From an uncultured beta proteobacterium (GTDB lineage Bacteria; Pseudomonadota; Gammaproteobacteria; Burkholderiales; Burkholderiaceae_C), in contig CAIJRK010000023.1 in NCBI GenBank assembly GCA_903823025.1, positions 62,001 through 126,000 on the forward strand: a stretch of DNA of 64,000 nt, read 5' to 3'. The position numbers and the translations under genes were made by a program. Shown piece by piece: positions 3,239 through 13,731 of the stretch. The notes beneath the pieces were generated by a model. That model saw nothing but the letters and a program-made list of their open reading frames with translations. It made no database searches and was not told the origin of the DNA. Positions within the stretch are counted from its first letter, which is position 1, and the number at the start of each line of letters is the position of its first letter.

Positions 3239-3586
3239 TTAGGTTGTGCTGCCAAAGACGTTGCCCAGTTGGCGGGCGTCGATGGCTTTGTCAAACCACG
3301 TTTCAATTTGTTCACGCGATGCCGAGGCTATTTGCGCCGTCATTTCTGGCGACAGCGCGCCAAAACGTCTGCTCAGTAATTTCTGCAAAGCCAAGGCTTC
3401 GCCCTGTTGTACGCCTTGCTGCAGACCTTGTTGCACGCCCTGTTGTATTCCTTGCTGCACGCCCTGTTGTATTCCTTGCTGCATCCCCTGCTGCAGACCT
3501 TGCGCCACACCCTCCGCCACGCCTTCCTGCATCCCTTTTGCCTTGTAAGCGGCAGCCCATTCGACCAGTCGTTCTGCCAGTGCCAT
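3239..3586 (-). CDS. predicted intragenic small Rpn protein (C-terminal, 115 aa)
   Basis: In-frame internal ATG at 3586, codon 239 of the Rpn gene, beginning MALAERLVEWAAAYKAKG and running through the QQG repeat to the shared stop. It is preceded by a perfect AAGGAG six bases upstream, better than the ribosome site of most genes here. E. coli rpn genes are known to encode a small C-terminal protein from an internal start that blocks the toxicity of the full-length nuclease. Here the same arrangement is inferred from the start and the ribosome site only; no internal promoter was demonstrated. Confidence 0.55.
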   Translation of the reverse strand: MALAERLVEWAAAYKAKGMQEGVAEGVAQGLQQGMQQGIQQGVQQGIQQGVQQGLQQGVQQGEALALQKLLSRRFGALSPEMTAQIASASREQIETWFDKAIDARQLGNVFGSTT

Positions 3587-4300
3587 ATTCAACTCCTTGA
3601 GGTTTTGTACATCGGGTAAAACAACAGTGTACTCACTGCGTCGCATCAGCGTGGCCCTGATCCACACGGCAAACATGCGTTTAAGTTCGGGCCTGTCAAT
3701 GAGCCAAATCTCCAGCAATCCGATCAATTCGCGGATGCTCTCTGGCGTGCTGGGGTGTTCAATCCGAAACACCGCCGCCACCAGATTTTGCAGGCTCGCC
3801 AGGTGCCCTTCGCTGTAGGCGCCTTCGTCAATCAGCAGGTATTGCATCTGTGGCCGAAATTGAGCTACCAGCCCCGGCACAGCAGGAATGAGGTCGGCTA
3901 TTTCAGTGGCCGCATTCCAACGCGGCGCGCCGTTGTAAAGCACGATGGGCAACACCGGCGGCAAGCGGCCATCTTTGAGAATTTCACCGCGTTTGATCAA
4001 GTCCTGGTACAAAAGTCCGGTGTAAACCATCATGCGCACGGCCATGAATTTGTCCACCTTGCTTTGGAACTCAAGCAGCAAATACAGGTAAACCCAGTCG
4101 CCGCCGACCTTGACACGCCAGACCACGTCATCCGAGCGATGGCGCAGGTCATCGGTGACGTAAGAGCCGGGGACTTTCTCCAAGGTGGCGTAGTCCAGGC
4201 TTTGCAGCCAGGGGTCGGGAATAAACCCATTGATCAGGTCGCGCACCATCTCGGGGGCGGAGAACAGATATTTGTAGCTGGCATCGTGGTTGAGTGACAT
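3239..4300 (-). CDS. Rpn family recombination-promoting nuclease/putative transposase
   Basis: 353 residues, using the ATG at 4300 (an upstream GTG at 4333 would add 11 residues that do not look conserved). The N-terminal half begins SLNHDASYKYLFSAPEMV, a typical Rpn/Transposase_31 opening, and carries a PD-(D/E)XK-type site with D57/D58 and E77-F-Q79. The C-terminal third is a chain of tetrapeptides QQG plus V, I, M or L, encoded by 12-base repeats. E. coli Rpn proteins are DNA endonucleases that promote RecA-independent recombination and have been tied to phage defence. The gene points opposite to the island operon and opposes the deacetylase. A decayed second copy lies at 13299-13731. An internal start with a strong Shine-Dalgarno is described separately. 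Confidence 0.88.
   Translation of the reverse strand: MSLNHDASYKYLFSAPEMVRDLINGFIPDPWLQSLDYATLEKVPGSYVTDDLRHRSDDVVWRVKVGGDWVYLYLLLEFQSKVDKFMAVRMMVYTGLLYQDLIKRGEILKDGRLPPVLPIVLYNGAPRWNAATEIADLIPAVPGLVAQFRPQMQYLLIDEGAYSEGHLASLQNLVAAVFRIEHPSTPESIRELIGLLEIWLIDRPELKRMFAVWIRATLMRRSEYTVVLPDVQNLKELNMALAERLVEWAAAYKAKGMQEGVAEGVAQGLQQGMQQGIQQGVQQGIQQGVQQGLQQGVQQGEALALQKLLSRRFGALSPEMTAQIASASREQIETWFDKAIDARQLGNVFGSTT
3404..3535 (-). repeat. 12-base tandem repeat encoding the QQG-x array
   Basis: Eleven imperfect 12-base units in phase with the reading frame. The plus-strand consensus is close to TTGCTGCACGCC alternating with CTGTTGTATTCC, giving the tetrapeptide QQG followed by V, I, M or L. Array length can be expected to vary by slippage. 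The repeat is missing from the decayed copy near 13300. Confidence 0.85.
3593..3598 (-). promoter_or_regulatory. internal Shine-Dalgarno within the Rpn gene
   Basis: AAGGAG on the minus strand, six bases before the in-frame ATG at 3586. It also encodes Lys-Glu of the full-length protein (KELNM), so it could be partly coincidental, but spacing and match are ideal. Confidence 0.6.
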
Positions 4301-4428
4301 GGCGGCATCGTACCCGGGCTGGCATAAATTCACTTATTGCGATTTATTTTGAGCGCCACTGGTGAAACGACACCACCTGTCAGCGACGCCAGTTAATCTT
4401 GCGTGGTTCTCTTCAAACGCCAGCCACC

Positions 4429-5346
4429 ATGCCCCATCTGACCGCCGCTCACCATGACACCCTCGTTTACCGACTCGCCCTTATTTTGGGCAAACTCAAC
4501 CAAGGCGAAAAGCTTGACCCGCAGACGCTCGCTGATGAATTCAACGTCAACCTGCGCACCATCCAGCGCGACCTCAACCAACGTTTTGCCTACTTGCCGT
4601 TGGAAAAAACCGATGGCCTGTATCACCTGCATCCCACGGTTTTAGGCAAACTCAGCACGCTTGACGTGGAGCGCTTTGCCAGTCTGGCGGGCGTGCGCGG
4701 CTTGTTCCCCTCGCTCTCGGACGACTTCTTGCGCGATATTTTTGATGCCGGCATTCAGACCGCGCTGCTCGTCAAAGGTCACCACTACGAAAATCTGGGC
4801 GGCAAAGAAGCCAGTTTTCGGCAACTGGAACAGGCCATCGTGACCCGACGCCACATTGCTTTTGAGTACCTCAAAAACGAAGGTAGCAAAACCTACGCGC
4901 AGATCGAACCCTACAAGCTGATGAACCACAAAGGCATTTGGTATCTGGCGGCCAAGGACGGCGGCCAACTCAAGACCTTCTCGTTTGCCAAGATTGACCG
5001 ACTGGCCCTCTCGGACACCACCTTTGCGCCAGACCTGAGCGTGGAAAAAACGCTGATTGAAGAAGACGGCATTTGGCTGGGCGGCGACAAGAAAGAAATC
5101 GTGCTCAAGATTGCCAGCGAAGTGGCCAGTTATTTCAAACGCCGCAAGCTCATTGCCAATCAGGTGATCGAGAAAGAGCTGGAAGACGGCGGGCTGATTG
5201 TGTCCGCCAAGGTCGGGCACCCGAACCAGGTCTTGCCAATTGTTCGCTACTGGATTCCGCATATTCGCATCATCAGCCCGGAGGGGTTGCAGGCGGAGAT
5301 GGAGCGGGGGATGCAAGGATATTTTTGTCAGCCTCCTCGTATTTAA
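4429..5346 (+). CDS. WYL domain-containing transcriptional regulator
   Basis: 305 residues from the ATG at 4429; a TTG at 4399 would add ten unlikely residues. An N-terminal winged helix-turn-helix (LADEFNVNLRTIQRDLNQRF, about 31-50) is followed by a WYL domain containing GIWYLAAKDGGQLKTFSFAKI and a WCX-like C-terminus. Regulators of this build (BrxR/CapW type) often stand first in phage-defence islands and repress the downstream effectors until infection; ligand sensing by the WYL domain is known for the family, the ligand here is not. It is the first gene of a plus-strand run reaching 13260 and starts 26 bases before the next gene. Confidence 0.9.
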   Translation: MPHLTAAHHDTLVYRLALILGKLNQGEKLDPQTLADEFNVNLRTIQRDLNQRFAYLPLEKTDGLYHLHPTVLGKLSTLDVERFASLAGVRGLFPSLSDDFLRDIFDAGIQTALLVKGHHYENLGGKEASFRQLEQAIVTRRHIAFEYLKNEGSKTYAQIEPYKLMNHKGIWYLAAKDGGQLKTFSFAKIDRLALSDTTFAPDLSVEKTLIEEDGIWLGGDKKEIVLKIASEVASYFKRRKLIANQVIEKELEDGGLIVSAKVGHPNQVLPIVRYWIPHIRIISPEGLQAEMERGMQGYFCQPPRI

Positions 5347-5372
5347 TGGTCATTTACCGGAAATAACTATCC

Positions 5373-6980
5373 ATGAGTCAAAAACAAAAAGACATTCAGT
5401 CTGAAATCGTCGATTTTGAAGTCATCACGCAGGAGGAATATCAGAACCAGCAGGCCGACCGCGTTGCCAAAGTTGTTTTTGACGGCGAGGAAAACGCCGA
5501 AAAAACGGGCAATCTGATCACGCAATTTGTGGCGTCTTATGAGCAGCACAAACATGAAATGCCACTTAACGAATGGTTGACTGCAGAATTCCGCAAACAC
5601 CCAACAATCTGGCAAGACGAGGCGGAAATCGAATCCACCTCCCGCGAAGTTATTGCCAGCGTTCAAGACGCCAACACGGCCAAGGAGTCGCTTTATGCCC
5701 ACCTTGACAAAGGCAAAAGCCGCGAAAGCTGGATCGCCAAGAAGATTGAAGACGGTGCCGCTGTCGCTGGTGTTACGCAAGTTGGGTTTTACGCAAAAAA
5801 CCTTGACCAAGCGTTAAGCGACGCCAACCTTAACGCGTTCAACGCGATTTTCAACAAGAAAGAAGATGTGTTCGGGGACTGGGAAGCCAGCGCGAACCCC
5901 CACATGCACGGCTTCATTGCCGAGGTGGATGTTGCCAACCAGTTCAACCTGAACGCCACCGCCAGCCAATCCGGCGTGAGTGCTGAAGTGCTGGGTGTCA
6001 CCAGCCTGAACTCTGCCGATCTTGTGATTCACGACGCCGCCGGGCAAGTGCTGCAACACGTCCAAGTTAAGTCGTATGCCGACGTTAATCAAGCGGTTAA
6101 CAACATTCGGTCGCACGGTTATCAGTCAGGAACGACGCTGTTGGTTCATGAAAACCAAGTGGAGCGGCTGCAGCGTGAATTCCCGAATCTGAACGTCACC
6201 AGCAAACTGGAGGCAGGCGGCGTCAGCAGCGACATGCCGAGCTATGAAAAGCTCAAGGAACTCCAGCGCGACGCTCAGACCCGTGAAGAGTCTCGTCAAT
6301 ATAAGTGGAATGACGTCAACCGGATCAACATTGCCAAAGGCATTGGCAAGCAAGCCTTATTGGGTGCGGGTATTGCCGCCGGGATGCAGGGCACCCGGAT
6401 TCTCAGTCGGCGTATCTGGAACAAGATGACGGGCAAAAAGAATCCGCCCGTCAGTGAAGACCTCAAAGAGTTTTTTGAAAGCTCCGTCAAAAGTGCCAAG
6501 CATGTGGGCGTGCAGGTCGCCGTTTCTGGTGCCGTCGTTGTTGCCGTTAAAAGCGGCTGGGTGGGCAAATTGTTGAAAGGCACACCTGCCGGAAAAATAG
6601 CTGAAGCGGTTTACGTTGGCATGGAAAACGCCAGGATTCTCTACAAATTCGCCAAGGGTGAAGTTAGCGGCGCAGAAGCAGTGGATGCCATGGGCAATGT
6701 GACTTGCAGCGCAGTTGGCGGCCTAATGGGTGCCAGTGCCGGGATGACGGAAGGCGCGGCACTGGGTTTGACCTTTGGGCCGGTCGGTGCGGTTATTGGC
6801 GGATTTGTCGGTGGCATTGTTGGCGGCATGGCGGGCAGCAAGATTGGAGACGCGGTCTATGCGGGCGGTAAGGCGCTTGTTAAAACGGCAGTCAGCGTTG
6901 TCAAAACTCTGTTCACTGGGGTAAAAGAAGCAGCGAAGGCTGTGGCTCGAATACTGAATCCGTTTAAATGGTTTGCATAA
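5373..6980 (+). CDS. unrecognised protein: PD-(D/E)XK-like motif plus C-terminal glycine-zipper membrane region
   Basis: 535 residues, family not recognised. Residues 1-130 are charged and probably helical. The middle has a pattern consistent with a restriction-endonuclease-like fold: E184 in GFIAEVDVANQFN, D216 in SADLVIHD and Q231-V-K233 in HVQVKSY. Residues about 446-498 are an extended Gly/Ala-rich hydrophobic zipper (GLMGASAGM, GPVGAVIGGFVGGIVGGMAG) like membrane-inserting or pore-forming segments, and another hydrophobic stretch lies near 385-400. A plausible reading is a toxic effector that combines a nuclease domain with a membrane-active tail; this is inference. It lies between the WYL regulator and a small protein, in the same orientation, with 14 bases to the next start. 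Confidence 0.7.
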   Translation: MSQKQKDIQSEIVDFEVITQEEYQNQQADRVAKVVFDGEENAEKTGNLITQFVASYEQHKHEMPLNEWLTAEFRKHPTIWQDEAEIESTSREVIASVQDANTAKESLYAHLDKGKSRESWIAKKIEDGAAVAGVTQVGFYAKNLDQALSDANLNAFNAIFNKKEDVFGDWEASANPHMHGFIAEVDVANQFNLNATASQSGVSAEVLGVTSLNSADLVIHDAAGQVLQHVQVKSYADVNQAVNNIRSHGYQSGTTLLVHENQVERLQREFPNLNVTSKLEAGGVSSDMPSYEKLKELQRDAQTREESRQYKWNDVNRINIAKGIGKQALLGAGIAAGMQGTRILSRRIWNKMTGKKNPPVSEDLKEFFESSVKSAKHVGVQVAVSGAVVVAVKSGWVGKLLKGTPAGKIAEAVYVGMENARILYKFAKGEVSGAEAVDAMGNVTCSAVGGLMGASAGMTEGAALGLTFGPVGAVIGGFVGGIVGGMAGSKIGDAVYAGGKALVKTAVSVVKTLFTGVKEAAKAVARILNPFKWFA

Positions 6981-6994
6981 ATTAAAAGGAAAAA

Positions 6995-7372
6995 ATGATG
7001 AGTGATAAATACTTTATAAGAGGCACGATTACGGTTCGCGTTGATGGATCTAAATCGTATATTCGCATTACCCCTTGTGTCGGCTTTTTGACACCAGATA
7101 AATCGGCTAAGGCAATTGCATTTCCGTTATCGCCAACGGAAAAAAACATAGCCAGGCTCATTAAATTATTGGATGAAAAGTTTTTTGTGTGCAAGTGTGA
7201 GTGCGAGTGCTGTGTCCGAAAAAACCATCTCCCCGCTCTGCTTGATATTGCGGGTCAACAAAAACCCGTTGAACTCCATCTAATCAAAGGAGAAGAAATA
7301 AAATCTACAGAACCTACAAAAGCAAAAGAGTTCAACTGGAAAATCGTTGGTTTCGTTTTTCCTGTTCTATAG
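6995..7372 (+). CDS. hypothetical 125-aa protein with cysteine cluster
   Basis: Starts at ATG 6995 with an AAAGGA ribosome site. The protein has a beta-rich start (KYFIRGTITVRVDGSKSYIRITP) and an unusual CKCECECC run at about residues 64-71, which could bind metal. The tail is hydrophobic (WKIVGFVFPVL). I do not recognise the family. It ends 2 bases before the SIR2-like gene, so the two are probably translated together. Confidence 0.65.
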   Translation: MMSDKYFIRGTITVRVDGSKSYIRITPCVGFLTPDKSAKAIAFPLSPTEKNIARLIKLLDEKFFVCKCECECCVRKNHLPALLDIAGQQKPVELHLIKGEEIKSTEPTKAKEFNWKIVGFVFPVL

Positions 7373-7374
7373 CC

Positions 7375-9021
7375 ATGAGAACTGGTTCTGAAACGCTCAT
7401 TTTCTGGGGGGCTGGCGCAACGGCAAACATAGGGTTACGCACATCGCCATTTCAGGCGAAAGCCATCAAATACTTGGTGGAAGAAAAACCAATGCTGACA
7501 GATCGTGTCAACAAGGTACCGAAATTTCCAAGCGTTTGGGCTTCCCCGTTTATCGACTTGCTGCACATATTGGGCGACGATAACGACGATATTTATCGCA
7601 TTACAAACACTGCACGGGAGGCTATGAGCCGTCATTGGCATGACTCATCGCCACAAGCGTTAGAAGCGAGAATTCATGAACTCCGGGCCTTGTTTGACTG
7701 GCCCGCACTGAAGGCCGTGGTGCGAGCCTGTCCGGGATTCAATCAAGAAGATCACCTCCAGCTTCAAGATGTCTTTAACTTGATTGACCTCCATGCGCAC
7801 AGCTTTCACGGGTTTCCCGGACTAGAAAAATTCTTGCCGCCAAGCCGTCTGATTGCAGCCCGACGAGCTTTGCAACTGGTACTCAACACGTTGTTTTATG
7901 TGGATTGGCAAACCGCACTCATCGAAAAAAAGAAAGATTTAGACAAGCATTTAGGTTTTTCGCGGTTGTTGACTGAACATCACCAGCAAGAAGGGTTGGC
8001 GCTGGCGACTACGCGACAGCATTTCGACTCTCGCAATTTCTATTTGGGCAGTGTTGCTTTTGCCAGCCTCAACTACGACCCGGTGGCGCTGTGGGCGCAG
8101 TTCATTGCAAATCGGGACGCCAACTTTCATCCGCCCTACATCGGGATGCCACGCGTACCACTCAAGATATTCCATGATTTTGGGATTTTCATGGCGGTCA
8201 GCACGATTGACCCCAAGAAGTCGGATGAGGACGAAAAAGAACGCGTTTGGTATCCGCTTAACGAGGCTTCAGCCCAACGACTGAATGACCGCGACTATGC
8301 CAGTCGGCGGGTGCGAATCAACAAGTTTTTATTCCCCCATGGTTGCTTATGCTGGCGCGAGTGCCCCAGTTGCGGCAAGCTCTCGGCCTACATGGGCAAA
8401 GAGTGGAATTTCTTCTCTCCAGCACTCATTCCCCCGCCCCCTTTGCGTGGCTTCGCGGACTTTGCCGCGATGCAGTTTCTGCACGAAACCGAAAAAGAAA
8501 GCGAAGCTTGGGCGCGGGGAGAAGTCGATGCCCGTGCCTGCGTTCACTGTGAAGAATTGACTTTTTCTCAGCACACGCAAGCTGTGATGCAAAGCAACTT
8601 CAAAGCGCCGCCTCCGTCATTTATTGATGAAGTGCAACGCGATTTGCGCGTTATCACTCAAGCGGCAAACCACATTATTTTGATGGGCTACTCGCTGCCA
8701 CCCGACGACGTGACCTATCGCGCCTTCTTTGCCGCCCGCCAGCAGCGCCATAAAAAAGGCGACGGCCTGTCAGTCCGCTGTTCTGTAGTCGTTGGGCAAA
8801 ACTGGGGTGACATGTGGCACGGCCCGGATGAAACCGACCGATTACTACCGGATATGGAGAAAGATGCTGCACCCCACACCACCTTGGTGGCGGCCCGAGA
8901 TTTGTTTGGACGTGACAACGTTCGCTTTTTTGGTGGTGGTATTCCGCAGGTATTTTGCGATGGCGATACAGCCTCTCCACAACGCTTTCAACAACTTATT
9001 AACTGGACCTCAACAAGATGA
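7375..9021 (+). CDS. SIR2-like (sirtuin-fold) NAD-binding protein, putative defence effector
   Basis: 548 residues. Sirtuin-fold motifs appear in order: GAGAT (12-16) for the NAD Rossmann loop, SLNYD (N233, the NAD-site Asn of SIR2-like proteins), PHGCL (H322, matching the catalytic His), a zinc-knuckle-like set of cysteines C330-x2-C333 and C389-x2-C392, and GYSLPPDD (438-445) near the end of the domain. SIR2-like proteins in defence islands (ThsA, DSR, SIR2-APAZ, SIR2-HerA) deplete NAD on phage infection; activity here is inferred from the conserved residues. The stop overlaps the start of the next small reading frame by ATGA at 9018-9021. Confidence 0.82.
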   Translation: MRTGSETLIFWGAGATANIGLRTSPFQAKAIKYLVEEKPMLTDRVNKVPKFPSVWASPFIDLLHILGDDNDDIYRITNTAREAMSRHWHDSSPQALEARIHELRALFDWPALKAVVRACPGFNQEDHLQLQDVFNLIDLHAHSFHGFPGLEKFLPPSRLIAARRALQLVLNTLFYVDWQTALIEKKKDLDKHLGFSRLLTEHHQQEGLALATTRQHFDSRNFYLGSVAFASLNYDPVALWAQFIANRDANFHPPYIGMPRVPLKIFHDFGIFMAVSTIDPKKSDEDEKERVWYPLNEASAQRLNDRDYASRRVRINKFLFPHGCLCWRECPSCGKLSAYMGKEWNFFSPALIPPPPLRGFADFAAMQFLHETEKESEAWARGEVDARACVHCEELTFSQHTQAVMQSNFKAPPPSFIDEVQRDLRVITQAANHIILMGYSLPPDDVTYRAFFAARQQRHKKGDGLSVRCSVVVGQNWGDMWHGPDETDRLLPDMEKDAAPHTTLVAARDLFGRDNVRFFGGGIPQVFCDGDTASPQRFQQLINWTSTR

Positions 9022-9146
9022 AAATGATCAAGTTCGACTTGCCGATGAACGGAAAAAAAATTGTTACTCTAGAAGAGCTAAGAGATAACGCCAGCATTGA
9101 ACTGCTTGCCCATTTTAAAAGCGGTTTATTAATAAAATGGCTTTAA
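9018..9146 (+). pseudogene. N-terminal fragment of tandem paralogue A (in-frame stop)
   Basis: A 42-codon frame starting in an ATGA overlap with the SIR2-like gene. It begins MKMIKFDLPMNGKK and matches the first 42 residues of paralogues B and C, ending at a TAA (9144-9146) exactly where they have Arg in KWLRSR. The same frame continues open after the stop (SRGLLDIVEKIK...) into the 9210 gene, so 9018-9959 looks like one ancestral gene with a single nonsense codon. Confidence 0.7.
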
Positions 9147-9209
9147 TCAAGAGGACTTCTTGATATTGTTGAAAAAATCAAGGCACTAAAAATAGTTGAA
9201 GACAAAACA

Positions 9210-9959
9210 ATGTTATGTAATATTTGTTTTATTTTTGACATCGGATGTGATTCTGATATTGCAGCAGCTCTATTAGAACAATCACAAGAAGGCATGTCAG
9301 AGCGAGTGTTAGACGATATTGTTGAAACTGTTTTTAAGATAACAATAAAAACACTTTTAACTAAAATTTATTATTCTATAAATGGTGGTTCTTATGTTTT
9401 CACAGAAATAGTTAAAAACTATAAAAAAGATACATTTAATTACGATGAAATTTTTGAATCGGGAGAGAATATTGCCAATGATTCAAACGGAAATGTAGTA
9501 GAAACCAACAATAGGCAAAGAATTATTGCCACTAATAAAAATTTGGCTGCTGTTATGCCAAAAGAGGTTGTTTTCATTCTTGAAGAGGTTGATGGAATAT
9601 CATCCAAATCATCGGCGTCTGCTGCAATGTTACTGCGATGTCTTTATAGAGTTTTCTACCTTGAAATGAATTTATGCCATACCGAAACGGGTAAAGCAGT
9701 CATGAAAAAATGTCAATTTCACGTTGTATCAGCAATCAATATCTTGGAAGAACTACAGTCTAAAGAAGATGGGATTCAAGTAAACTTCACAAACCCGAAG
9801 TTTGGCTCTGAAAAAACTCCGCCTTGGCAGGATATTAATAGTCAGAATTCGGCATATTTACCTATTAAATCGACAGTTGGAGAATTGCTTAGATTCGTTG
9901 CCTGGCCAATAGGTGGCATTCTTGGTGGCCTCATCGGCACGATGAAAAATCGCAATTGA
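9210..9959 (+). CDS. C-terminal part of tandem paralogue A, possibly re-initiated
   Basis: 249 residues from ATG 9210, in the same frame as the 9018 fragment. It lacks the conserved N-terminal LIKFDLP domain, which lies upstream of the nonsense codon. The middle (residues 20-190) is helical and AT-rich in codon use, with no recognised domain. The last 25 residues contain a short glycine zipper (WPIGGILGGLIGTM), echoing the membrane tail of the 5373 gene product. It could be expressed from the internal ATG 64 bases after the stop, or it may simply be a broken gene. Confidence 0.6.
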   Translation: MLCNICFIFDIGCDSDIAAALLEQSQEGMSERVLDDIVETVFKITIKTLLTKIYYSINGGSYVFTEIVKNYKKDTFNYDEIFESGENIANDSNGNVVETNNRQRIIATNKNLAAVMPKEVVFILEEVDGISSKSSASAAMLLRCLYRVFYLEMNLCHTETGKAVMKKCQFHVVSAINILEELQSKEDGIQVNFTNPKFGSEKTPPWQDINSQNSAYLPIKSTVGELLRFVAWPIGGILGGLIGTMKNRN

Positions 9960-9968
9960 TATAAAAAA

Positions 9969-10115
9969 ATGAAATTAATAAAATTTGATCTGCCTATTGA
10001 TGGCATCAAAGCCAAAAATATAGAAGAACTTCGAGATCATTTCACCATTGAAATCTTGGATCACTATCGCAGTGGTTTGTTAGCTAAATGGCTTCGCAGT
10101 CGAAATATGAATGAG
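9969..10115 (+). repeat. direct repeat, 5' end of paralogue B (partner 10877-11023)
   Basis: 147 bases aligned without gaps to 10877-11023, with about 14 mismatches counted by eye, mostly at third positions. Similarity falls sharply downstream. The repeat encodes the shared N-terminal domain. Confidence 0.8.
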
Positions 10116-10583
10116 AAATTGGTGGAAATTTCATCTCTTGAGAGTATGGATGAACACGCATTGCTCAAGCGTTTGTGTGAAATTTTCTATATTGAAGCTG
10201 ACGATATAGTTATTTCAGCCATGCTTGATAATAATCCTGAAAAAATAACTAAAAATATAAGTGTTTTTTCTGCAAAATATGATGAGATTGTCAATGAGAT
10301 TGTCAATGAGATTGATGCTGCTATTTATCATGTTTTGAGAAATACGTGTATAGCTGCACCGGGAAGTGGATATCTTAAATGGAATGAGAAATCAATAAAT
10401 AAAAGAGGTGATATTTTATTAAATTCTGACTCCGTAAGTGTTTGCTCTTCAGGTCGTGGAGATATTAATAAATTATTTTATGAGAATAGTATTCATCCTA
10501 AAGGTAAAATTGTAGGTTGGTTTCTTTTATCTCCGCATATCGAGGATTATGTAGAAAATATAGATGATTTTTTTATATCATAA
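9969..10583 (+). CDS. tandem paralogue B, N-terminal part (frameshifted gene)
   Basis: 204 residues starting MKLIKFDLPIDGIKAKNIEELRDH. The first 49 codons are about 90% identical in DNA to paralogue C at 10877, then the two drift apart; IVGWFLLSPHIEDY still matches IAGWFFLSKHVEDY in C. The frame ends at a TAA at 10581, while the missing C-terminus is found in another frame at 10586-10873, so this is one gene split by a frameshift. The family is unrecognised. It may be a helical adaptor: the N-terminal domain is shared by all three paralogues, while the rest varies. Confidence 0.65.
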   Translation: MKLIKFDLPIDGIKAKNIEELRDHFTIEILDHYRSGLLAKWLRSRNMNEKLVEISSLESMDEHALLKRLCEIFYIEADDIVISAMLDNNPEKITKNISVFSAKYDEIVNEIVNEIDAAIYHVLRNTCIAAPGSGYLKWNEKSINKRGDILLNSDSVSVCSSGRGDINKLFYENSIHPKGKIVGWFLLSPHIEDYVENIDDFFIS

Positions 10584-10585
10584 CA

Positions 10586-10873
10586 ATGCGATTTAATGAA
10601 TTAAATTATATTTTTAATAATATTGATATACCACTATTTAAGGCGGCCTTGATATGTCGAATATCAACGTTAGAAGAAATAATAAAAATACTTTTAGATG
10701 TGATCGGTGAAACTGCTACAGTTGTATTGAATTCACTTTGTTCTCTTTCTCCAGAGCAGCAGAAACTTATATTTTTAGACGATTACGTCCCATCTAAAAA
10801 AGATGCCTTGAATAGTAGTTCAAAAATTGTCAAGGATTCTTTTCTTGAAAAGAAAAACTGGGCATTAAAATAA
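10586..10873 (+). CDS. tandem paralogue B, C-terminal part (other frame)
   Basis: 95 residues matching the C-terminal third of paralogue C: STLEEIIKILLDVIGE against ERRLVLLNNLVDSISQ, and LSPEQQKLIFLDDY against LPLEQQCLIFFDDY. It lies in a different frame from 9969-10583, with a stop and 2 bases between. It most likely represents the displaced end of paralogue B rather than an independent gene, although a local ATG exists. Confidence 0.55.
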   Translation: MRFNELNYIFNNIDIPLFKAALICRISTLEEIIKILLDVIGETATVVLNSLCSLSPEQQKLIFLDDYVPSKKDALNSSSKIVKDSFLEKKNWALK

Positions 10874-10876
10874 AAA

Positions 10877-11023
10877 ATGAAACTCATAAAATTTGATCTA
10901 CCTATTGACGGAATTAAAGCCAAAAATATAGAAGAACTTCGGGATCATTTGACAATTGAAATCTTGAATCACTATCGCAATGGTTTGTTGGCTAAATGGT
11001 TGCGCAGTCGAAATATGAATGAG
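10877..11023 (+). repeat. direct repeat, 5' end of paralogue C (partner 9969-10115)
   Basis: Partner of the repeat at 9969-10115; see there for the comparison. Confidence 0.8.
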
Positions 11024-11746
11024 GAATTGGCGGCGCTTGCTTCTCTTGATGGTTTGGATGAGCACGTATTACTCAAGCGGTTATGCGAAATTTTAGGAGT
11101 CGAGGCTGATGATTTTGTTATTTCTGCTCTAATTGACAAACCACCCGAGAAGGCAAATGACAGCATAGCGGGCCTTGTTCGTCGGTATGACAAACTGACC
11201 AATACGCTTGATTTTGTTATTTACGATGCCTTGCGAACTAATTCATTAACAGCTACAGGAAACGGAAAACTTTCTTGGGAGCCGGGCAAGATTTTTGGTA
11301 AAGGTGACGAGCTCCTGACAACCAATAATTGGCTGACTATTTCTCCTGGTGTGGGTCAAGTTATTGGAAAAACTTCAAAAAGTCCTAATACTAACTTCAC
11401 GATGGGTAGCATTGCTGGCTGGTTTTTTCTTTCCAAACATGTAGAGGATTACAAGGAAGACTGGCCGGGATTCAGATCAATGCTGAAAGAGCGAGTTAAA
11501 TTGCTTGGATCCATGGTGGATCATGTTGATAACTCACTTCTTAATCAATCTATTGAGCGCCGTTTGGTGCTTTTGAATAATCTGGTCGATAGTATTTCTC
11601 AAGCCATACACACATCGACTCTACTCGAATCCCTTCGAGATTTACCGTTAGAGCAGCAGTGTTTGATATTTTTTGATGATTATTCAATAAAGAGAAATAA
11701 AAATTATGTCATTCATTCTGCAATTGACTCGTTAGCTTCTAACTAA
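10877..11746 (+). CDS. tandem paralogue C (intact), unrecognised family
   Basis: 289 residues and the only apparently complete member of the three. An N-terminal domain of about 100 residues (FDLPIDGIKAKNIEELRDH, LLAKWLRSRNMNEELAALASL, LLKRLCEILGVEADD) is shared with A and B. A middle region contains GWFFLSKHVEDY, and a helical C-terminus ends with LEQQCLIFFDDY. No catalytic motif or membrane segment is obvious. Its place between the SIR2-like effector and the AAA+ ATPase suggests a recognition or adaptor subunit; that is inference. The sequence is visibly more AT-rich than the flanking genes. Confidence 0.7.
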   Translation: MKLIKFDLPIDGIKAKNIEELRDHLTIEILNHYRNGLLAKWLRSRNMNEELAALASLDGLDEHVLLKRLCEILGVEADDFVISALIDKPPEKANDSIAGLVRRYDKLTNTLDFVIYDALRTNSLTATGNGKLSWEPGKIFGKGDELLTTNNWLTISPGVGQVIGKTSKSPNTNFTMGSIAGWFFLSKHVEDYKEDWPGFRSMLKERVKLLGSMVDHVDNSLLNQSIERRLVLLNNLVDSISQAIHTSTLLESLRDLPLEQQCLIFFDDYSIKRNKNYVIHSAIDSLASN

Positions 11747-11769
11747 AAATCGTAATTGAGATTAAATTT

Positions 11770-13260
11770 ATGACCCAACACCTGATAGAAAACGTCCGCG
11801 CTCACGTCGAATCTCATTACCCGGTGCTTTATCTCGTGACCCACGAAGAGACTGAGGCGGATGCCCTGATTGTTGAACTGGCCGATGGCCGCAAGATCAT
11901 GGAATGGAATATGGGGCGCGGCATGGTGCATTTCGATACCAAGCAGCCGTTGGCAGCTTGGTGCGATCTGGCTGCGGCGCTGGACAACTTTCTTGATCAG
12001 GAACTTGACAACCATTTCATCGTCATCCGCGACGCGCACCTTGGGTTACGCGAACAGCCGTTGGCCATTGCCCGCTTGAAATCGCTGATCCATAAAATCC
12101 TCGCGGATAAAGAAGGCGTTGCGACGATTTTTCTGGTTTCCGCCCAGTCTTTTGTACCGCCTGAACTTGAAAAATTCATCACCTTGTTCGATTTGCCGTT
12201 ACCTGATGAAGCGATGATTCAGTCGGTTATCAAGGAATATGCGGAAGGTTACGAACAGGTCATGGACGATGAAACGCGCTCCAAACTGGCGCTGGCCTTT
12301 CAGGGGTTGACGCGCTATGAAATCGGACAGTTGATCAATCGCGGCTTCCAGCGCGACGGCAATATCGGGCTGGAAGACCTCGATCTGGTGTTGACTGAAA
12401 AGGCGCAGATCATCAAAAAAAGCGGCATTCTTGAAATGCTCACAGTCAACGAGAAGCTTGAAGACATTGGCGGTCTCGAAAAGCTAAAACCCTGGTTGCG
12501 CCAAAAGGCCAAGATCATGAGCGACTGGCCTGCCGCACGCGCTTTCGGCGTTGAGCCACCCAAGGGCGTGATGATTGTCGGGATGCCCGGCTGCGGTAAA
12601 TCCCTGACCGCCAAGGCGACTGCCGCCTTGTTCAATTTGCCGCTGCTCAAACTCGACATGGGCTCACTCATGGGCAAGTACGTGGGCGAAAGCGAAGGCA
12701 ATATGCGCCGCGCACTCAAACTGGCCGAGGCGGTCAGTCCGTGCGTGTTGTGGGTGGACGAGTTGGAAAAAGCCTTTGTCGGCATCGGTAGCGGCGGGGC
12801 AGGCTCGGAAGTGGCGACTCGGTTATTTGGCTATTTCCTGACCTGGATGCAGGAAAAAACAAAACAGGTTTTTGTCATTGCAACCGCCAACGACATTTCG
12901 GCATTGCCGCCAGAACTGTTGCGCAAAGGGCGCTTTGATGAGATTTTTTATGTCGATTTCCCGACTGAATCCGAGCGTGCCGATATTTTCAAGGTGCATC
13001 TTGAAAGACGCAAACAATTGTCGGCCCGGACGCAGCTTGACCGTTTGGCCAAGGCCACCGTGGGCTACTCGGGCGCAGACATTGAGTCGATAGTCAAAGA
13101 AGCGATTGAGCAAGCGTTTGTGGATGGCGGTCTTGCGCTGGATAACGAGCGCTTATTGAAAGTCGTCGCCGCTACGCATCCTTTGCGTGAGGTTATGAAA
13201 AAGAAGGTGAAGGAATACGAAGATCGTTTTGCTGAAATGAAAATCAAGCCTGCGTCGTAA
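11770..13260 (+). CDS. AAA+ ATPase, Ycf46-like
   Basis: 496 residues. The N-terminal 220 residues begin with [17 protein letters not shown], like Ycf46-type proteins. An FtsH/Cdc48-like AAA domain follows, with Walker A GMPGCGKS (271-278), Walker [10 protein letters not shown] (D330, E331) and the region with the presumed arginine finger LLRKGRFDE (R388), then the small helical lid ([14 protein letters not shown]). The ATPase looks active. In defence operons such ATPases usually act as sensors or as remodellers that switch the effector on. It is the last gene of the island operon, 23 bases after paralogue C, and returns to the GC-richer codon use of the WYL and SIR2 genes. Confidence 0.88.
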
Positions 13261-13298: not shown

Positions 13299-13731
13299 TT
13301 AGGTTGTGCCACCAAAGACGTCGCCCAGTTGGCGAGCGTCGATGGCCTTGTCAAACCACGCATCAGCGTGGCCCTGATCCACACGGCAAACATGCGTTTA
13401 AGTTCGGGCCTGTCAATGAGCCAAATCTCCAGCAATCCGATCAATTCGCGGATGCTCTCTGGCGTGCTGGGGTGTTCAATGCGAAACACCGCCGCCACCA
13501 GATTTTGCAGACGCGCCAGACCACGTCATCCGAGCGGTGGCGCAAATCATCGGTGACGTAAGAGCCGGGGACTTTCTCCAAGGTGGCGTAGTCCAGGCTT
13601 TGCAGCCAGGGGTCGGGAATGAACCCGTTGATCAGGTCGCGCACCATCTCGGGGGCGGAGAACAGGTATTTGTAGCTGGCGTCGTGGTTGAGTGATATGG
13701 CGGCATCGTAACCGGGCTGGTATCAAACTCA
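13299..13731 (-). pseudogene. decayed Rpn-family nuclease gene (second copy)
   Basis: Same orientation as the intact copy at 3239-4300 and closely similar to it in three blocks. The two internal deletions correspond to about 3301-3644 (the repeat, the internal start and nearby coding sequence) and about 3793-4109 (including catalytic E77). The start ATG is changed to ATA (gagtgatatgg against gagtgacatgg). The matching sequence runs past the start and stops near the end of the asparagine-synthase gene. It cannot encode a functional nuclease. Confidence 0.85.

What the first reader, a model, noticed from the sequence alone, without database searches (positions are those of the whole stretch)
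4429..13260. Candidate undescribed defence operon: WYL regulator, nuclease/zipper protein, SIR2, three paralogues, Ycf46-like ATPase
All genes run on one strand with gaps of 2-60 bases, begin with a WYL regulator of the kind that heads defence islands, and include a SIR2-like protein with intact motifs and an AAA+ ATPase. The set interrupts an exopolysaccharide locus. I do not recognise this combination as a named system: the 5373 gene, the 125-aa gene and the paralogues have no family I can name. Co-operation of the parts is inference.
Basis: partly seen in the sequence, partly recalled or inferred. Interest (0 to 1): 0.82.

Follow-up and report, generated by a model that had tools for sequence, protein, structure and literature searches.

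The report
Membrane-zipper and unfoldase defence operon
A bacterial gene set that looks like a mobile anti-virus defence unit: a protein-unfolding motor, a membrane-zipper nuclease-like protein and swappable adaptor proteins, with a second (SIR2) gene pair slotted inside it.

Summary
The operon is real (4429-13260, one strand) but composite. Its core is WYL regulator, glycine-zipper/nuclease-like protein ("NUZ"), N-domain proteins and a Ycf46/CDC48-like AAA ATPase. These four recur in 5 of 5 full-length NUZ loci found in 399 sampled genomes of the order; one is a second copy in this genome. Zipper + N-domain + AAA versions lie on Exiguobacterium (beside McrBC) and Microcystis plasmids. NUZ + AAA without N-domain lies in Klebsiella/E. 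coli loci with CARF nuclease, vWA/PP2C/kinase and DUF2357 genes, once near BREX. Those loci fit the "SpoVK + glycine zipper" extension of Type III-A CoCoNuTs (Bell 2024), so the pair is partly known; I found no description of the stand-alone WYL/N-domain form. The 125-aa + SIR2 genes are a separate two-gene module inserted in the middle. Of three N-domain paralogues, the first has an in-frame stop (the 9210 ORF is its tail) and the second is split. A same-genus genome lacks the 10.5-kb island; Rpn-gene repeats flank it. Best reading: a stand-alone defence cassette in which the ATPase, through N-domain adaptors, licenses a membrane/nucleic-acid effector. Neighbourhood supports defence; the mechanism is inference.

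The parts
3239..4333 (-). Intact Rpn-type (Transposase_31/YhgA-like, DUF4351) nuclease gene, left border of the island
   Evidence: Pfam 107 bits; repeated in degraded form at 13299-13723
4429..5346 (+). WYL/WCX transcription regulator (an upstream TTG at 4399 is also possible)
   Evidence: WYL genes also in the other 4 full-length NUZ loci
5373..6980 (+). NUZ: 535 aa, PD-(D/E)XK-like segment (E184, D216, Q231-x-K233) and C-terminal glycine zipper
   Evidence: 7-row alignment; 9 GxxxGxxxG starts at 449-484; nuclease reading from motif spacing and from PMC11090510 for the related protein
6995..7372 (+). p125: 125-aa protein of unknown family, partner of SIR2
   Evidence: no Pfam, PADLOC, NCBIfam or PHROG match; 44% identical homologue directly before SIR2 in L006
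7375..9021 (+). SIR2-like protein, 548 aa
   Evidence: GAGAT, N233-x-D235, H322, C330/C333/C389/C392 and GYSL invariant in 3 sequences; no library or PDB match
9018..9959 (+). para0: N-domain paralogue with an in-frame TAA (9144-9146); ATG overlaps the SIR2 stop; ORF 9210-9959 is its tail
9969..10873 (+). para1: N-domain paralogue read as two ORFs in different frames (9969-10583 and 10586-10873)
   Evidence: alignment with para2; N-domain E 6e-37
10877..11746 (+). para2: unbroken N-domain paralogue, 289 aa, C-terminal part of unknown family
11770..13260 (+). Ycf46/SpoVK/CDC48-like AAA+ ATPase, 496 aa, active-type AAA at about 257-450
   Evidence: Pfam AAA 103.8 bits, AAA lid 36.1 bits; best PDB relatives CDC48/p97; alignment
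13299..13723 (-). Degraded second copy of the Rpn gene, right border of the island
   Evidence: three blocks at 92, 99 and 95% identity to 3239-4325

Best explanation
The island is a horizontally acquired defence locus built from two units. [quoted passage not shown] Proposed working: the WYL protein keeps expression low; N-domain proteins are adaptors whose variable C-terminal parts (pentapeptide repeats, GTPases, unknown folds) sense the invader or dock on a target; the AAA ring remodels the complex and releases NUZ; NUZ puts its glycine zipper into membrane and binds or cuts nucleic acid, ending the infection or killing the cell. Unit 2 (p125 + SIR2) is a separate, probably NAD-consuming module inserted between NUZ and the N-domain genes. 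Shown: recurring gene set, domain content, modularity, insertion, defence neighbours of related cassettes. Inferred: repression by WYL, adaptor role, membrane insertion, nuclease activity, NAD loss, anti-phage action.
For: WYL, NUZ, N-domain and AAA together in 5 of 5 full-length NUZ loci of 399 order genomes. All 9 N-domain matches in 300 order genomes lie in those loci. Zipper + N-domain + AAA on Exiguobacterium and Microcystis plasmids, the first directly after McrB/McrC-type genes. NUZ next to AAA in 15 of 15 plasmid records with NUZ, in the two read followed by CARF nuclease, PP2C and kinase genes; PADLOC hits there. E. coli ZF34: brxC, pglX, pglZ, brxL upstream. JukA homologue inside the G660 gene run. 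Island absent from same-genus G214. p125 + SIR2 alone in L006.
Against: No functional data. The AAA family is broad: 663 plasmid and 56 phage records match, one beside contractile-injection genes. The N-domain has no profile similarity to NUZ or AAA, so no homotypic coupling, and it is absent from the Klebsiella-type loci held. One N-domain copy (G1059) is fused to an enzyme without NUZ or AAA on its contig. The paper calls the nuclease fold of the related protein inactivated. Hydropathy peaks of NUZ are borderline (1.47, 1.68) and the Exiguobacterium zipper protein has none over 1.3. JukA is said to be in over 20% of Gram-negatives, so its place in one operon may be chance. No palindrome found upstream of the WYL gene here. 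Two of three N-domain genes here are broken.
Confidence: 0.6

Rival explanations
1. One integrated system: the AAA/N-domain complex senses phage and switches on SIR2, which depletes NAD.
For: All genes on one strand; the SIR2 stop overlaps the para0 start; SIR2 motifs intact.
Against: SIR2 is in 1 of the 5 full-length NUZ loci; its two relatives lack the other core genes in the DNA held.
Confidence: 0.12
2. The cassette is not immune but serves protein quality control, stress response or a contractile-injection-like machine; the defence neighbours reflect shared mobility.
For: CDC48/p97-like ATPase; a family member beside contractile-injection genes in Treponema; weak phage-tail hits of the NUZ zipper region.
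Against: WYL in 5 of 5 loci, patchy distribution, and neighbours such as CARF nuclease, BREX, McrBC, JukA in independent genomes; tail hits cover only the zipper part.
Confidence: 0.18
3. The window copy is a decaying, no longer working island; only the C58 copy of this genome works.
For: In-frame stop in para0, split para1, degraded Rpn copy; a second copy with unbroken core ORFs in the same genome.
Against: WYL, NUZ, p125, SIR2, para2 and AAA are uninterrupted ORFs.
Confidence: 0.1

Closest known systems
[quoted passage not shown] 2024, PMC11090510)
   Same: A zipper protein with PD-(D/E)XK-like fold next to a CDC48-like AAA whose C-terminal domain alone has the ATP motifs; Klebsiella/E. coli relatives of NUZ and AAA lie in a gene set that fits the description
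   Different: No McrBC, vWA, PP2C, kinase or CARF gene in the window operon; instead WYL and N-domain proteins, and a nested SIR2 pair; the AAA lacks the C-terminal extension seen in the plasmid protein
Effector-associated domains (EADs) of Kaur et al. 2020 (PMC7159879)
   Same: Small non-enzymatic-looking domain, several paralogues side by side, fused to varied partners including pentapeptide repeats and GTPases
   Different: No copy on the core proteins; no Pfam match
Juk (jumbo phage killer)
   Same: A JukA homologue lies in the G660 operon; Juk pairs a sensor with a membrane pore effector (PMC13282480, passages)
   Different: No JukA in the window operon
SIR2 NADase defence proteins (DSR, ThsA, Avs5 and others; names recalled)
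   Same: SIR2-type motifs with the N-x-D and H residues
   Different: No PADLOC, Pfam or PDB sequence match; Cys pairs and a 125-aa partner
IetAS
   Same: AAA similarity (PADLOC IetA 97 bits)
   Different: 89 bits against a cut-off of 510 for the NCBIfam model; no subtilase-type partner seen

Membership tests
Type III-A CoCoNuT (extended) | Glycine-zipper PD-(D/E)XK-like protein beside CDC48-like AAA | tested here: met
   description in PMC11090510 section 10
Type III-A CoCoNuT (extended) | McrB/McrC-type (CnuB/CnuC) genes and TerY-P triad in the operon | tested here: not met
   none among the 9 operon ORF products and the left Rpn product scanned
EAD | Match to a catalogued EAD family | tested here: not met
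   no Pfam EAD hit for window or related N-domain proteins; that Pfam holds EAD models is recalled
[quoted passage not shown]
   hhalign probability 0.1 with NUZ and 0.4 (percent) with AAA
EAD | Paralogous copies in adjacent genes with varied fused domains | tested here: met
SIR2 NADase effectors | Sirtuin-type catalytic and zinc-binding residues | tested here: met
   invariant in 3 sequences; assignment of roles recalled
SIR2 NADase effectors | SIR2 fold | not testable with these tools
   structure jobs were interrupted and the tool switched off
SIR2 NADase effectors | NAD hydrolysis on infection | not testable with these tools
   needs an experiment
Juk | JukA in the locus | tested here: not met
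   no JukA hit in the window operon; present in G660
IetAS | IetA over its curated cut-off | tested here: not met
   89.2 against 510 bits
PD-(D/E)XK nuclease (NUZ) | Conserved E, D and (D/E/Q)xK residues | tested here: met
   E184, D216, Q231, K233 invariant in 7 rows, two of them nearly identical
PD-(D/E)XK nuclease (NUZ) | Recognisable profile or fold similarity | tested here: inconclusive
   no Pfam or PDB sequence match; paper reports the fold, called inactivated, for the related protein

The most novel reading that the evidence does not exclude
A cross-phylum family of three-part immune systems distinct from CoCoNuTs: a CDC48-like unfoldase, a glycine-zipper membrane effector with an optional nuclease-like insert, and a new adaptor domain that plugs in interchangeable sensors and is duplicated and diversified at each locus. 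The CoCoNuT version would be a later capture of this cassette.
Probability: 0.45. Interest if true: 0.78.

Novelty: new variant of a known kind. Interest (0 to 1): 0.62.

Why it matters
If right, bacteria use a p97/CDC48-type unfoldase with swappable adaptors to arm a membrane effector, a logic close to eukaryotic immune and quality-control machinery. It would also explain the zipper + ATPase insert in CoCoNuT operons as a portable cassette. Compact stand-alone copies with unbroken genes (G455, and contig C58 of this genome) make the idea directly testable.

Tried and rejected
Rejected: SIR2 + Ycf46-like ATPase as a conserved pair. Rejected: N-domain as an EAD with a homotypic partner on NUZ or AAA. 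Set aside: the weak NUZ matches in 15 of the 19 matching genomes and the phage-tail hits, which lie in the C-terminal part that holds the glycine zipper. Rejected: IetA membership. Led nowhere: viral-contig scans for NUZ, the NUZ alignment, para2 and SIR2 (no relative); plasmid scans for SIR2 and para2 (none); PDB sequence searches for NUZ and SIR2 (nothing convincing); palindrome upstream of the WYL gene (none in the window stretch); papers on this stand-alone form (none seen in the listings or in the passages read). Control: 0 of 63 viral loci with a related AAA carry an N-domain ORF at E 0.05 (ORFs of 60 aa or more with a start and a stop inside the locus).
Full report
What is there. Window 4429-13260 holds, on the + strand, a WYL/WCX regulator, a 535-aa protein (NUZ), a 125-aa protein, a 548-aa SIR2-like protein, several ORFs of an N-domain family and a 496-aa AAA+ ATPase. 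Among the operon products Pfam finds only WYL/WCX and AAA with its lid above cut-off. PADLOC finds WYL, IetA-like similarity of the AAA domain, and a weak PD-Lambda-5_A hit (18 bits) of ORF 9210. NCBIfam finds nothing over a cut-off. GC of the N-domain genes and p125 (0.29-0.40) differs from that of WYL, NUZ, SIR2 and AAA (0.52-0.55), which points to a patchwork.

Corrections to the reading. An N-domain profile finds three copies in the window, at 9018, 9969 and 10877. The first starts at ATG 9018, overlapping the SIR2 stop, and has TAA at 9144-9146; ORF 9210-9959 is its tail. ORFs 9969-10583 and 10586-10873 line up with one gene of the 10877-11746 type. So one of three paralogues is unbroken. 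The second and third copies share 83% DNA identity over 268 bases.

The core recurs. Of 399 genomes sampled from the order, 19 had a NUZ match at E 0.001; 4 of them (5 loci) had a full-length match, and the other 15 match only the C-terminal part with the zipper. The five loci are this window, contig C58 of the same genome, G455, G522 and G660. In 5 of 5 there is an AAA homologue (47-68% identity to the window's), at least one N-domain gene and a WYL gene. Layouts differ: C58 has NUZ-N-domain-AAA with a divergent WYL about 0.6 kb away; G455 has WYL-NUZ-N-domain-small ORF-AAA; G522 has N-domain-N-domain-AAA-NUZ-REase-N-domain with WYL about 4.3 kb beyond NUZ; G660 has WYL-JukA-N-domain-NUZ-REase-N-domain-AAA. 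A sample of 398 genomes of the phylum gave only this genome at E 1e-20, so the core is rare.

The N-domain. It is about 90 residues, mostly begins with IKFxL and carries a KWL motif. It is fused to pentapeptide repeats in C58, G455, G522 (two genes) and G660, to Sel1 repeats plus GTPase in G522, to a CobW-type GTPase in Microcystis, and to unknown parts in the window, G660 and Exiguobacterium. In 300 order genomes 9 of 9 matches lay in the NUZ/AAA loci. In 299 phylum genomes only this genome matched. Among 61 genomes around G522 three matched; one of them, G1059, has the domain on a dihydrolipoamide-acetyltransferase-like protein (name recalled from its sequence), 335 bases from a contig end, without NUZ or AAA on 10.9 kb. 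That is the one exception seen; a chimaeric contig cannot be excluded. Neither NUZ nor AAA shows profile similarity to the N-domain. The domain was not found in the Klebsiella-type loci held, nor in 63 viral loci with a related AAA.

NUZ anatomy. The seven-row alignment (two rows nearly identical) keeps E184, D216, Q231 and K233, a spacing that fits PD-(D/E)XK enzymes with a Q variant (the family rule is recalled). Nine GxxxGxxxG starts lie at residues 449-484, and two hydropathy peaks are borderline for a membrane helix. The full NUZ profile hits an Exiguobacterium protein at positions 98-129 and 402-516 (E 2.7e-13) and a Microcystis protein at 92-164 and 354-518 (E 3.7e-16); the middle part has no match in either. 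The N-terminal part alone supports only the Microcystis match (E 1.7e-4). Both genes lie directly before an N-domain ORF and an AAA gene. So the nuclease-like segment looks like an optional part of a zipper protein. The Exiguobacterium protein has no hydropathy peak over 1.3.

Defence company. AAA lies next to NUZ in 15 of 15 plasmid records that hold NUZ. The two whose neighbourhood I read have a vWA gene before, and CARF nuclease, PP2C and kinase genes after. In the first of them PADLOC scores the CARF protein at 868 bits and gives MkoA-like (257 bits), weak MkoB-like, kinase and TerY-like hits, and a DUF2357 gene is annotated. In E. coli the pair is in 3 of 5426 genomes. In ZF34 it lies about 4 kb after a brxC-pglX-pglZ-brxL run, with two insertion sequences between, is followed by Card1-like, second vWA, PP2C and kinase genes, and a partial MobH relaxase gene closes the stretch. 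On the Exiguobacterium plasmid McrB- and McrC-type genes directly precede zipper-N-domain-AAA. In G660 a JukA homologue (E 1.5e-69) sits between WYL and an N-domain gene. Against specificity: AAA of this family is broad, with 663 plasmid records at E 1e-40 (41 over 80% of the length) and 56 phage records at E 1e-30, and one member lies by contractile-injection genes.

Literature. [quoted passage not shown] The Klebsiella/E. coli loci fit that description; I did not compare accessions. PMC7159879 (passages and section 30) defines EADs. PMC13282480 (passages) describes JukA as a sensor with diverse effectors. PMC9122588 (abstract and outline) reports a WYL repressor of CBASS. Term searches inside PMC12839542, PMC10853773 and PMC13092281 showed no mention of this set. 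Library searches showed no description of the stand-alone form; many subscription papers and all preprints are not held.

The nested pair. SIR2 has no match in the other 298 family genomes, two relatives in the GTDB contig collection, and none in plasmids or viral contigs. In the Comamonadaceae MAG a 125-aa homologue stands directly upstream of SIR2, without NUZ, N-domain or AAA in the 21.7 kb held; the Sideroxydans contig starts inside SIR2 and shows none of the other genes in 4.1 kb. So p125 + SIR2 behaves as a portable two-gene module. Its sirtuin-type residues are invariant in three sequences, but its fold could not be tested.

Insertion. In same-genus G214 the matches to the deacetylase (to 89197) and to the asparagine-synthase gene (from 89248) end 50 bases apart. 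Here about 10.5 kb lies between the two genes. The island is bounded by an intact Rpn-type nuclease gene on the left and a degraded copy on the right (three blocks at 92, 99 and 95% identity, same orientation). The only other match at E 1e-10 in this genome is a partial one on C47. This looks like acquisition with, or between, Rpn copies; the mechanism is not shown.

Working model and odds. WYL holds expression low; N-domain proteins sense or tether; the CDC48-like ring remodels the complex; NUZ acts on membrane and nucleic acid; SIR2 adds a second effector. The parts list, modularity, insertion and the defence neighbours of related cassettes are shown. The rest is inference. I put the model as a whole at 0.6.

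Noticed in passing
G000 contig C58 (L035:7447-13395): A second copy of the core (NUZ, N-domain/pentapeptide, AAA; divergent WYL) in the same genome, with unbroken ORFs and without SIR2.
   Followed up: partly
L038:12850-13575 (-): A JukA homologue (PADLOC E 1.5e-69) lies inside the G660 version of the operon.
   Followed up: partly
L142:335-2269 (+): N-domain fused to what looks like a pyruvate-dehydrogenase E2 enzyme, near a contig end; real fusion or assembly chimaera.
   Followed up: no
L037:14278-14925 (+) and L038:6442-7092 (-): A similar 216-aa protein closes both gene runs; one gives a weak RiboL-PSP-HEPN hit (E 0.007), the other none.
   Followed up: partly
L116 (G522:C84:64793-65002): Another N-domain copy with an in-frame TAA, in G522: broken paralogues are not unique to the window.
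   Followed up: no
window 13243-13257 and A2: The AAA proteins share a conserved K-x-K-x-A-S-like tail at residue 493-496 (K493, A495, S496 invariant in 6 rows); many plasmid and phage matches also reach residue 496.
   Followed up: no
L138:1-1593 (+): A 4.5-kb contig deposited as an unverified faecal bacteriophage encodes a NUZ homologue (E about 1e-117), without N-domain or AAA on the contig.
   Followed up: partly
window 9210-9959: The tail of para0 gives a weak PADLOC PD-Lambda-5_A hit (18 bits, E 2.6e-4).
   Followed up: no
window 3239-4333 and 13299-13723: Direct Rpn-gene repeat flanks the island, with two internal deletions in the right copy.
   Followed up: partly
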